Shown: positions 6,631-9,515 of the stretch, in pieces
Position numbering within the stretch: position 1 is the stretch's first letter
Layout of the letters: each line of letters opens with the position of its first letter
NCBI GenBank assembly: GCA_016928995.1
Contig: JAFGJS010000100.1
Location: 1-16,496 of the forward strand
Origin: Candidatus Sumerlaeota bacterium
GTDB lineage: Bacteria; Sumerlaeota; Sumerlaeia; JAFGJS01
Length of the DNA stretch: 16,496 nt
Direction of reading: 5' to 3'
Position numbers and translations under genes: made by a program
The notes under the pieces: generated by a model
What the model saw: the letters and a program-made list of their open reading frames with translations, nothing else
Databases searched by the model: none
Told to the model about the DNA's origin: nothing

Positions 6631-6887
6631 CGCGTTCGGATTTCAAATCAAGTTCAAGCGGCCCTCGTTCAGCGCGCGGTCCGACTGGCGATACGGTTGG
6701 GTGAAATGCGATGATTTTTTGGTACCCTTACCTTCGCGGCGTGATCCCCTCCTCGAATTTCTCAACCGGAGTTCATGCGTCCACCATCCCTGAACCGACC
6801 TTAAGCAGGATGCGAAACCCAATCAATTCTATCCTTAGTCGATGCTGTCCTTGCTGCGTATAAGCGGACAGCGTGGAGGACGATCTC
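6631..6887 (+). promoter_or_regulatory. Long 5' leader with a hairpin next to the ribosome-binding site
   Basis: This gene-free leader ends with GCTGTCC (6844-6850) and GGACAGC (6866-6872), a perfect 7-bp inverted repeat with a 15-base loop. Its right arm stops 3 bases before the ribosome-binding site GGAGGA (6876-6881). A stem so placed could modulate access to that site. I do not recognise any known riboswitch class here, including SAM or SAH types. Confidence 0.35.
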
Positions 6888-8975
6888 ATGGCAAAAACTG
6901 ACGTGCAAGCGTCCAGCAACGTGCAAAACCATCGGAATGGGCCGCAACCAAAAACGGCTCAACCTCAGAAGCAACAAAAGGCTAGTCAGGCGCAGAAAGC
7001 AAGGACGACAGAACTGCTGAAGACCATTGGTCCGGTGGACAACCTGGAAAGCTATGTCAAGGCCGATTGGTGGCGGCAGATCTTCAACGCCAACTACCTG
7101 CGCACGGACGGCGACGTGGTGGAAGACCGGGCGCTGACCAGCCGTGAGGTGGATCTGTTGGAGCAGGCGCTCAAGCCAAGCAAGGACAGCATGATCCTCG
7201 ATCTCTGTTGCGGGCAGGGCCGGCATGTCCTGGAATTAGCCCGGCGCGGCTACAGCCGGGGACACGGTTTGGACCGCTCGCATTATCTGATCACCCGCGC
7301 GCGCGCGATCAACAAGCAGGAAGGGCTGAACGTCACATTCAAGGAAGGCGACGCGCGCAAACTTCCCTTTCCGGCGGACACGTTCGACTGCCTGTATATC
7401 GCCGGCAACAGTTTCGGCTACTTTGAATCGGCAAAAGACGATATTTCCGTGCTGCGCGAGGTGATGCGCGTGCTCAAGCCGGGCGGACGGTATCTGATCG
7501 ACGTGTCGGACGGCGATTACATCCGGCAAAATTTCCAGCCGCGCGGCTGGGAATGGATTGACAAGAATTACTTCGTCTGCCGCGAACGTTCGCTTTCCGC
7601 GGATGGCGAGCGGCTGATCTCGCGCGAGGTGATCTCGCACGTGAACAAGGGGGTCGTGGCGGATCAATTCTACGCCGAGCGGCTCTATACGCGGGAGAGC
7701 CTGCTCGATCTGCTGAAGCGCGCGGGATTCTCTGAAATCGAATTCCACGGCGAGATCGTCACCGACTCCCAGCGCAATCAGGATCTGGGCATGATGGAGC
7801 GTCGTGTCGTCGTGTCGTGCAAGGCGAAGAAGGAATGGACCCGCACGACGCCGAAAGCCAAAGCCTCCCAGACCATCGCCGTGCTGATGGGCGACTATCG
7901 CAAGCAGGACAAGGTGAAGCCCAACGCGAACTTCGACGAGGACGACTTCTACACGATCAATGAGATGAAAAGGGCGCTGGCCCAATTGCAGGACCGGCGC
8001 ATCCTGTATTTCGACTCGCACGACACGATGATCCGCGATTTGATGCGCAACGCCGGGAAGTTCGATTTTGTCTTCAACCTCTGCGACGAGGGCTTCAACA
8101 ACGATGCGACCAAGGAACTGCATGTGCCTTCGCTGTTGGAGATGCTCGGCATCCCGTACACCGGCGGAACGCCGCAGTGCCTGGCCTATTGCTATGACAA
8201 GTCGCTCGTGCGCGGCGTCGCGATGGAGATGGAGATCCCCGTGCCGCGCGCGACGTTCATCAAGCCGGAAGACACGACCTTCATCGACCTGCAGATCGAG
8301 TTTCCGGTGATCGTCAAGCCCAACTTCGGCGATTCCAGTTTTGGCATCACGGCGGCCAGCGTCTGCGGCAACATTGAGGAGCTGCAATACGCATTGCAGC
8401 TCGTGCGCGATCAACTCGGCTATGACAAGCCGATCCTGGTGGAGGAGTACCTTACCGGCAAGGATGTCAGCGTGGGGATCATCGGCAATCCGCCGGATTC
8501 GTATCTCACGCTGCCGATCATCCAGGAGGACTATAGCGCGCTGCCCGAGGGCCTGCCGAGGATCTGCGGCTACGAGGCGAAGTGGGATCCCGATTCGCCG
8601 TACAGCAAGATCACCTCGATTCCGGCGGGGCTGCCCGAAGCGACTGAGCGCTTCCTCACAGCGAGCTGCCTGAAGCTCTTCGAGCGGCTGGAGTGCCGCG
8701 ACTATGCGCGTTTCGACTGGCGGCTGGATGACAACAAAACGCCGCGCCTGCTTGAGGTGAATCCGAATCCCGGCTGGTGCTGGGACGGGCACTTAGCGAA
8801 GATGGCCGCGCTCGACGGCGTCAATTACTCGCAGATGCTCGACATGATCCTCCGCGCCGCCGAGGAGCGCATCCGCCGCGAACAACAGTCCGGCGCCCTT
8901 GGAAACGGCAAGGAGAAGATCGCCGTCCAGCAGCAAGCAGTAGCGGTTAAAGCGCTTAGCATCGAAACCGATTGA
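6888..8975 (+). CDS. SAM methyltransferase fused to a D-Ala-D-Ala-ligase-like ATP-grasp domain
   Basis: A 695-residue two-domain enzyme. After a Gln/Lys-rich, probably disordered first 45 residues comes a class I methyltransferase (about 55-310): SAM-binding motif I LDLCCGQGRH (104-113), the later VLKPGGRYLIDVSDG, and FPADTFDC. The second half (about 329-665) is an ATP-grasp ligase of the D-Ala-D-Ala ligase type: IPYTGGTP, a nucleotide-binding Lys477 in IVKPNFGDSSFGI, ILVEEYLTGKDVSVGI, and the metal-binding EVNPNPG with Glu623 and Asn625. The ligase half should form an amide bond from ATP and an amino acid or peptide; the substrate is unknown. It is unlikely to be the housekeeping Ddl, which is a single domain usually among mur genes. 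ATG 6888 follows GGAGGA by 6 bases; a GTG at 6873 is rejected because it precedes that site. A relic of its 3' end lies downstream. Confidence 0.9.
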   Translation: MAKTDVQASSNVQNHRNGPQPKTAQPQKQQKASQAQKARTTELLKTIGPVDNLESYVKADWWRQIFNANYLRTDGDVVEDRALTSREVDLLEQALKPSKDSMILDLCCGQGRHVLELARRGYSRGHGLDRSHYLITRARAINKQEGLNVTFKEGDARKLPFPADTFDCLYIAGNSFGYFESAKDDISVLREVMRVLKPGGRYLIDVSDGDYIRQNFQPRGWEWIDKNYFVCRERSLSADGERLISREVISHVNKGVVADQFYAERLYTRESLLDLLKRAGFSEIEFHGEIVTDSQRNQDLGMMERRVVVSCKAKKEWTRTTPKAKASQTIAVLMGDYRKQDKVKPNANFDEDDFYTINEMKRALAQLQDRRILYFDSHDTMIRDLMRNAGKFDFVFNLCDEGFNNDATKELHVPSLLEMLGIPYTGGTPQCLAYCYDKSLVRGVAMEMEIPVPRATFIKPEDTTFIDLQIEFPVIVKPNFGDSSFGITAASVCGNIEELQYALQLVRDQLGYDKPILVEEYLTGKDVSVGIIGNPPDSYLTLPIIQEDYSALPEGLPRICGYEAKWDPDSPYSKITSIPAGLPEATERFLTASCLKLFERLECRDYARFDWRLDDNKTPRLLEVNPNPGWCWDGHLAKMAALDGVNYSQMLDMILRAAEERIRREQQSGALGNGKEKIAVQQQAVAVKALSIETD

Positions 8976-9028
8976 TTCGAGCGAAGGATGACAATTCTAT
9001 ACTGATCTATGCCCGAGTGAGAAGAGAA

Positions 9029-9055
9029 CACAGCCGAGGGTGGCTGTGCCACATT
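9029..9055 (+). repeat. Outer arm (left) of nested inverted-repeat array
   Basis: CACAGCC-GAGGGT-GGCTGTG (7-bp stem, 6-base loop) followed by CCACATT. Its reverse complement recurs at 9449-9475 with one mismatch in 27 bases, bounding about 450 bp. The element reads AQPPSAV in one minus-strand frame, a string I recall from spurious proteins predicted in planctomycete-type genomes. That suggests a dispersed family. Confidence 0.75.
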
Positions 9056-9112
9056 CAATAGGATGCGGCAAGATCCTTCGAGAACAGCTCTATATGAGAG
9101 TCAGCTGCCGCA

Positions 9113-9189
9113 GGCAACGGCAGGGAGAAAATCGTCGCCCAGCAGCTATCGACAACGGTCAGCATTGAACCGATTGATTCGAGAGAAGG
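9113..9189 (+). pseudogene. Relic of a second copy of the methyltransferase/ATP-grasp gene 3' end
   Basis: Two blocks match the end of the intact gene. Bases 9113-9146 match 8901-8934 at 29 of 34 positions (GNGREKIVAQQ against GNGKEKIAVQQ when translated). Bases 9161-9189 match 8958-8987, with two substitutions and one lost base, through the stop codon and 12 bases beyond. Between the blocks the relic is 9 bases (3 codons) shorter, so the frame was kept until the single-base loss near the old stop. Weaker similarity may reach back to about 9066 (KILREQ against RIRREQ), though that part may instead belong to a repeat. A diverged tandem paralogue that lost all but its tail explains this best. 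Confidence 0.7.
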
Positions 9190-9203
9190 GTATATAAGGA
9201 AGT

Positions 9204-9248
9204 CAGCCTGAAAGGCTGTAAGTTCGTAGCCGGGGGCAGCGCCCCCGG
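9204..9248 (+). repeat. Middle arm (left): double-hairpin REP-like element
   Basis: CAGCCT-GAA-AGGCTG (9204-9218) is followed by GTTCGTAG and the 8-bp GC hairpin CCGGGGGC-AGC-GCCCCCGG (9230-9248). An inverted copy of the whole arrangement is at 9355-9400; the 16 bases 9222-9237 match the reverse complement of 9366-9381 at 15 positions. Elements of this kind are typical of REP/REPIN families moved by TnpA_REP (RAYT) transposases. No transposase gene is in the window. Confidence 0.75.
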
Positions 9249-9270
9249 AACGACGATAGCCATCATTCAG

Positions 9271-9331
9271 GCCCTGAAAGGGCGCGACAAAAGAACGCTG
9301 TGATGCCGTTGATGTGTCGCCCTTTCAGGGC
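9271..9331. repeat. Inner inverted pair built on CCCTGAAAGGG
   Basis: GCCCTGAAAGGGC (9271-9283) and its exact reverse complement GCCCTTTCAGGGC (9319-9331) face each other across 35 bases. The arms extend inward through GACA/TGTC apart from a 2-base insertion on the left. Each arm is itself a 5-bp stem with a 3-base loop. This is the centre of the nested array. Confidence 0.75.
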
Positions 9332-9354
9332 TTTTCGTGATATACATCCTTTTT

Positions 9355-9400
9355 CCGAGGGCGTTGCCCTCGGCTACGAACTGGCCGCCCTCCAGGCGGC
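9355..9400 (-). repeat. Middle arm (right): inverted copy of the double-hairpin element
   Basis: CCGAGGGC-GTT-GCCCTCGG (9355-9373), then CTACGAAC and GCCGCC-CTCCA-GGCGGC (9384-9400). Read on the minus strand it repeats the order seen at 9204-9248: small hairpin, GTTCGTAG, large hairpin. The small hairpin has diverged in sequence while keeping its pairing, which suggests selection on structure. Confidence 0.7.
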
Positions 9401-9448
9401 GGATAGCTTTCTAAAGATGTCACTCTATAGAAATGGTGTTTTCTGAAA

Positions 9449-9475
9449 AATGTGGCACAGCCGCCCTCGGCTGTG
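9449..9475 (-). repeat. Outer arm (right) of nested inverted-repeat array
   Basis: Reverse complement of 9029-9055 with one mismatch (a C/T difference in the loop), again with a CACAGCC/GGCTGTG stem. Confidence 0.75.
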
Positions 9476-9515
9476 GCCGCTGGCAATATGCAAAAACTAC
9501 CGAGATACGCTGTAA

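What the first reader, a model, noticed from the sequence alone, without database searches (positions are those of the whole stretch)
9029..9475. Three-tier nested inverted-repeat array
Outer arms (27 bases, one mismatch), middle double-hairpin arms (15 of 16 core bases matching) and inner CCCTGAAAGGG arms (13 of 13) are arranged symmetrically around about 9301. Each arm is itself a hairpin, and the small middle hairpin has changed sequence on one side while keeping pairing. This looks like a composite of several REP-type families inserted inside one another, or a single large non-autonomous element. No transposase is present locally.
Basis: partly seen in the sequence, partly recalled or inferred. 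Interest (0 to 1): 0.6.

Follow-up and report, generated by a model that had tools for sequence, protein, structure and literature searches.

The report
Transposon ends without the transposase
The nested palindromes are a tiny jumping element of about 195 bases that has kept the two three-hairpin ends of a small transposon but lost the transposase gene, which still sits elsewhere in the genome between ends of the same design; two unrelated mini-elements happen to flank it.

Summary
The repeats are real, but they are three elements rather than three tiers. Middle and inner arms (9205-9398) are one gene-less element: a(small hairpin)-b(GTAG + hairpin)-c(small hairpin), then c'-b'-a'. In this genome all six genes for TnpA_Y1 'subclass 1.2' proteins (IS200-like, motif Y---Q--HH) are bracketed by the same mirrored a-b-c ends. 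Four further gene-less mirrored pairs occur. A covariance model of one end finds 48 copies (E<=0.01). Across 61 genomes, end module and gene co-occur (21 both, 2 gene only, 3 module only, 35 neither; p=4e-11). In 43 of 56 such genes, left and right flanks match each other beyond the 99th percentile of mispaired controls. The middle hairpin has a conserved N(T/C)AG foot, like the GTAG guide of REP sequences. Subclass 1.2 was published as generally lacking terminal structures, so this supplies its probable substrates and a REPIN-like system. The outer arms are cores of two separate copies (about 95 and 110 bp) of a TA-flanked MITE with roughly 40 copies; they centre on 9252, not 9301, so the third tier is accidental. 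Movement itself is inferred. New variant of a known kind.

The parts
9205..9400 (.). Gene-less (non-autonomous) element: a-b-c, short spacer, c'-b'-a'
   Evidence: same order and size at C22:6991-7193, C122:33678-33882, C93:45553-45742, C97:3167-3360
9205..9217 (+). left hairpin a, AGCCT GAA AGGCT
9226..9229 (+). GTAG foot (guide-like tetranucleotide) of hairpin b
   Evidence: N(T/C)AG feet across relatives
9230..9248 (+). left hairpin b, CCGGGGGC AGC GCCCCCGG
9271..9283 (+). left hairpin c, GCCCT GAA AGGGC, followed by GCGACA
9319..9331 (-). right hairpin c'
9355..9377 (-). right hairpin b' with GTAG foot (CTAC at 9374-9377 on +)
9386..9398 (-). right hairpin a', CGCCT GGA GGGCG on the minus strand; pairing kept through sequence change
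8998..9092 (+). Left outer element: one copy of a dispersed TA-flanked MITE; core palindrome 9029-9050; left end degenerate (approximate limits)
9404..9514 (-). Right outer element: second, independent copy of the same MITE family (other subfamily); core 9454-9475 (approximate limits)

Best explanation
The middle and inner tiers are one REPIN-like, non-autonomous transposable element of about 195 bp. It consists of the two inverted three-hairpin ends of an IS200-like TnpA_Y1 subclass 1.2 element without its gene. Shown: the same a-b-c/c'-b'-a' design brackets all six subclass 1.2 genes of this genome; gene-less paired copies and single ends are dispersed in this genome and amplified in relatives; presence of the module tracks presence of the gene. 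Inferred: when the element is single-stranded (for example on the lagging-strand template), the hairpins form, TnpA encoded elsewhere binds hairpin b and uses the N(T/C)AG foot as guide to choose cleavage sites, and cuts and rejoins through its HUH/tyrosine site, moving the pair of ends in trans. Hairpins a and c probably help recognition or spacing of the end complex. The outer arms are two separate TA-flanked MITEs that share the intergenic region.
For: Six subclass 1.2 genes with mirrored ends in G000; HUH, catalytic Tyr and Y---Q--HH invariant in eight proteins, matching the published subclass signature; weak sequence match to solved IS200-type transposases. 14 half-modules from gene-bearing and gene-less copies, including two Proteobacterial elements: 96.4% of cells paired, 27 double-sided changes against 10.2 in shuffles, 0/500. 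48 modules in G000. Gene/module co-occurrence 21/2/3/35, p=3.6e-11; within the class 21/1/2/15, p=8e-8. 43 of 56 loci have matched ends above the 99th percentile of mispaired flanks; 69% of gene flanks hold three or more hairpins against 3% shuffled and 5% distal. G009: a single subclass 1.2 gene with these ends, plus 73 modules, at least 18 as gene-less pairs of 193-197 bp, 87% identical, in differing flanks. L048, L049 (Proteobacteria) and Persicobacter L137 show the same ends.
Against: No movement, excision product or clean empty site of the a-b-c element was observed; exact element limits and cleavage sites are not fixed, and G009 and a G000 subfamily carry extra conserved sequence outside hairpin a. 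The gene-bearing element whose ends best match the window copy lies in another species (L048); the best in this genome (L042) matches less well, so the cognate transposase may be absent, diverged or unassembled. 13 of 56 loci lacked matched ends.
Confidence: 0.8

Rival explanations
1. Ordinary REP/BIME array of a canonical RAYT (TnpA_REP groups 2/3) with one REP family.
For: GTAG + hairpin b looks like a REP and pairs in inverted orientation; three other Y1 genes of G000, two of them close to the RAYT model (L045 above its cut-off), lie in the genome.
Against: Those other genes (L045, L046, L047) are flanked by other inverted hairpins, not a-b-c; the genes that carry a-b-c match IS200/IS605 TnpA and subclass 1.2 and do not reach the RAYT cut-off; each end has three hairpins, and feet are N(T/C)AG, not only GTAG.
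Confidence: 0.1
2. One large 447-base three-tier element whose true ends are the outer arms.
For: Outer arms are 96% complementary and flank the middle element; MITE-like ends also lie beside the C22 and C122 copies.
Against: Outer arms are cores, not ends, of complete elements of about 95-110 bp that occur alone at roughly 40 places; they centre on 9252 rather than 9301; no other locus has the full three-tier order.
Confidence: 0.03
3. Structured RNA or terminator/attenuator elements kept for host function rather than mobile DNA.
For: Strong hairpins with compensatory changes; intergenic location between a + strand and a - strand ORF.
Against: Mirror pairing of like modules, bracketing of a transposase gene, dispersed copies of uniform length in differing flanks, and gene/module co-occurrence. 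A later host role (terminator, mRNA stability) is not excluded.
Confidence: 0.05

Closest known systems
REPIN / BIME with RAYT (TnpA_REP) systems (Bertels & Rainey 2011 PMC3116915; Nunvar 2010 PMC2817692)
   Same: Short inverted palindrome pair, tetranucleotide foot 5' of a hairpin, non-autonomous dispersed copies, single or few Y1 transposase genes flanked by the same hairpins.
   Different: Three hairpins per end instead of one; foot N(T/C)AG, not only GT(A/G)G; transposase is IS200-like subclass 1.2, not class 2.
TnpA_Y1 subclass 1.2 (Quentin et al. 2018, PMC6006769)
   Same: Y---Q--HH motif, C-terminal extension, low copy number.
   Different: [quoted passage not shown] here most have mirrored three-hairpin ends and gene-less derivatives, in another class as well as in Proteobacteria and Bacteroidota.
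IS200/IS605 insertion sequences (IS608, ISDra2)
   Same: HUH/Y1 TnpA related by profile; subterminal hairpins with a 5' guide tetranucleotide.
   Different: IS608-type ends carry a hairpin each (from PMC6006769) and, from general knowledge, differ left from right; here the ends are near mirror images with three hairpins.
TA-target MITEs (IS630/Tc1-mariner type)
   Same: The outer elements: about 100 bp, imperfect terminal repeats GAGCGGTTCTCGAAAG, TA at both ends, one in-genome site consistent with TA duplication.
   Different: No IS630 (DDE_3) gene found in this genome; parent element unknown.

Membership tests
TnpA_Y1 subclass 1.2 elements (partner transposases) | Y---Q--HH motif with HUH | tested here: met
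   Invariant in eight proteins, six from this genome; signature as published
TnpA_Y1 subclass 1.2 elements (partner transposases) | generally no typical terminal secondary structures (published description) | tested here: not met
   43 of 56 loci with matched inverted ends; three or more hairpins on 69% of flanks. It is the published description, not the protein assignment, that fails
REPIN (RAYT-mobilised inverted REP pair) | two inverted REPs, each a hairpin with a 5' tetranucleotide foot | tested here: met
   GTAG+b at 9226-9248 and 9355-9377; feet in relatives
REPIN (RAYT-mobilised inverted REP pair) | associated gene is a RAYT (class 2 TnpA_REP) | tested here: not met
   Associated genes pass the IS200 TnpA model and fall well below the RAYT cut-off
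REPIN (RAYT-mobilised inverted REP pair) | mobility of the pair as a unit | tested here: inconclusive
   18 G009 pairs of uniform length in varied flanks, but no direct movement seen
IS200/IS605 insertion sequence | carries tnpA between hairpin ends | tested here: not met
   Window copy has no gene; six elements elsewhere in the genome do
IS200/IS605 insertion sequence | single-strand cleavage at guide-selected sites without target duplication | not testable with these tools
   needs biochemistry
TA-target MITE (outer elements) | terminal inverted repeats and TA target duplication | tested here: inconclusive
   TIR consensus seen. One filled site, CAGTAGCGTT-TA-GAGCAG...CGC-TA-TAAAGG against CAGTAGCGTTTAAAGG elsewhere, fits a TA duplication, but that copy shares only the TIRs, not the core
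TA-target MITE (outer elements) | parent IS630-type transposase in the genome | tested here: not met
   No DDE_3 match; no long-range exact TIR pair; assembly is 92% complete

The most novel reading that the evidence does not exclude
TnpA_Y1 subclass 1.2, described as lacking IS-like ends, is the transposase of a distinct, phylum-crossing kind of single-strand HUH element with mirror-image three-hairpin ends (small hairpin - N(T/C)AG-hairpin - small hairpin), which mobilises gene-less REPIN-like derivatives in trans.
Probability: 0.6. Interest if true: 0.65.

Novelty: new variant of a known kind. Interest (0 to 1): 0.55.

Why it matters
It gives a transposase subclass with no assigned DNA substrate a specific, widely conserved candidate substrate, and it extends the REP/RAYT kind of partnership to an IS200-like lineage. 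That makes the origin of REP systems from IS200-type insertion sequences directly testable, because this subclass sits next to true IS200 transposases yet behaves like a REP system.

Tried and rejected
Single 447-base element: rejected, outer arms are independent elements and off-centre. Canonical RAYT origin: rejected, those genes have other flanking hairpins. IS630 parent for the outer MITE: none found in the genome. The plasmid collection gave only two subclass 1.2-like homologues; one (Persicobacter, L137) has the ends, the other (Bernardetia, L138) does not. Literature: 'subclass 1.2' in this sense was found only in PMC6006769 in the held library; its supplementary tables and the subscription literature were not available. 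The organism could not be named: handles are anonymous and no other genome of its genus or family is held.

Full report
Observation. All three arm pairs exist at the stated places and are far beyond chance (single-strand fold z = -8.65). The claim that all three are concentric is wrong: middle and inner arms centre on 9301, the outer pair on 9252.

What the middle and inner tiers are. The stretch 9205-9400 is one unit: hairpin a (9205-9217), GTAG plus hairpin b (9226-9248), hairpin c (9271-9283), spacer, then c', b', a' in mirror order. A DNA search of the window's own genome (G000, 4.55 Mb, 161 contigs; the window is the whole of contig 145) finds the same unit at C22:6991-7193 and C122:33678-33882. 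Further gene-less mirrored pairs are at C93:45553-45742 and C97:3167-3360.

Where the design comes from. G000 has nine Y1 transposase genes. The six best all carry Y---Q--HH at the catalytic tyrosine, HUH, and a C-terminal extension. These are published marks of TnpA_Y1 subclass 1.2 (PMC6006769). NCBIfam names the four tested IS200/IS605 family transposase, and none reaches the RAYT cut-off. Each of the six is bracketed, within about 220 bp, by small hairpin - larger hairpin - small hairpin on the left and the mirror image on the right. The window copy therefore has the ends of such an element without the gene. The three other Y1 genes have different flanking hairpins.

Tests. Fourteen half-modules (gene-bearing, gene-less, and from Deltaproteobacteria and Thiotrichales assemblies L048 and L049) align over 91 columns; the three helices pair in 96.4% of cells with 27 double-sided changes, 0 of 500 shuffles as good. 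The rows were chosen because they look alike, so this test supports pairing rather than discovery. A covariance model of one end finds 48 copies in G000 at E<=0.01; its own training rows from G000 account for 11 of these. In 61 genomes the module (E<=1e-4) and the gene (E<=1e-20) go together: 21 both, 2 gene only, 3 module only, 35 neither; p=3.6e-11, and within the same class 21/1/2/15, p=8e-8. Genomes share ancestry, so these p-values overstate the strength of the evidence. For 56 subclass 1.2-like genes, the left flank matches the reverse complement of its own right flank above the 99th percentile of 1500 mispaired flanks in 43. Counting hairpins without any sequence model, 69% of 200-bp gene flanks have three or more, against 3% of shuffled and 5% of distal stretches. 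The four bases before the middle hairpin are mostly N(T/C)AG (GTAG 14, CCAG 9, ATAG 8, TTAG 8, TCAG 6, CTAG 4), a position and sequence like the GTAG guide of REP elements (PMC8266576). A named record, a Persicobacter plasmid (Bacteroidota), shows the same ends.

Amplification. Genome G009 has a single subclass 1.2 gene, at C178:102337-102786, with module hits on both sides (102238-102323 and 102836-102921), and 73 modules in all. At least 18 are gene-less pairs of 193-197 bp with a 17-20 bp gap between module hits, 87% identical on average and lying in several different flanks. A uniform gene-less unit in differing surroundings is what mobilisation in trans, or repeated copying, would leave. 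G025 has pairs in the opposite orientation, as in the two types of REP dimer.

How it most likely works. Shown: shared ends, dispersal, co-occurrence, conserved foot and catalytic motifs. Inferred from the IS200/IS605 and REP literature: hairpins form on single-stranded DNA, TnpA binds them, the foot guides cleavage, and the tyrosine joins the ends, moving the gene-less pair. Not shown: any cleavage, circle or empty site. The ends in G000 closest to the window copy belong to L042, but the Deltaproteobacterial L048 element is closer still, so the original partner may be diverged or missing from the assembly.

The outer arms. Each is the palindromic core of a separate element with imperfect terminal repeats (GAGCGGTTCTCGAAAG type) and TA at both ends, found at roughly 40 places. 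A relative with the same terminal repeats but another core sits in C88 within a sequence whose uninterrupted form occurs elsewhere in the genome; the comparison fits a TA duplication. No IS630-type transposase was found. The two window copies are of different subfamilies, so their inverted placement is best read as coincidence in a repeat-rich intergenic region. Real nesting of the two families occurs elsewhere: at least three modules with CAGTAGCG ends sit inside the outer palindrome (L178, L181, L182).

Verdict. A gene-less member of a REPIN-like system that uses an IS200-like subclass 1.2 transposase and three-hairpin ends. The individual element is modest; the general association is the interesting part, because the subclass was described as generally lacking terminal structures. 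Absence of prior description is judged only from the held open-access library.

Noticed in passing
window 8901-8987 and 9118-9190: The 3' end of the ORF 6873-8975 (methyltransferase / D-Ala-D-Ala ligase-like fusion) is partly duplicated downstream (about 75% identical), with the left outer MITE lying between the two copies.
   Followed up: partly
L178, L181, L182 (G000 C50:153, C103:174, C112:36185): A subfamily of a-b-c modules with outer ends CAGTAGCGTTTAAAGG is inserted at much the same point inside outer-MITE palindromes (CCGAGGGCGG|CAGTAGCG), suggesting a target preference for the palindrome.
   Followed up: partly
L177 (G000 C88:30850-31058): An element with the outer-MITE terminal repeats but a different core is inserted at a TA inside the CAGTAGCGTTTAAAGG end of an a-b-c module.
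   Followed up: partly
G025, e.g. C65:34047-34283, C118:24300-24520: a-b-c modules paired in the opposite orientation (a facing a', about 50-65 bp apart) with many copies.
   Followed up: no
L138 (Bernardetia plasmid NZ_CP147018.1): A subclass 1.2-like tnpA without matched ends, but with four GTTGC-GCAAC hairpins upstream.
   Followed up: no
G000 C156, C56, C131 (L045-L047): Three other Y1/RAYT-type genes flanked by other REP-like hairpins (for example GTAGCGCCAGCGTCTCGCTGGC), so several REP-like systems coexist in this genome.
   Followed up: no
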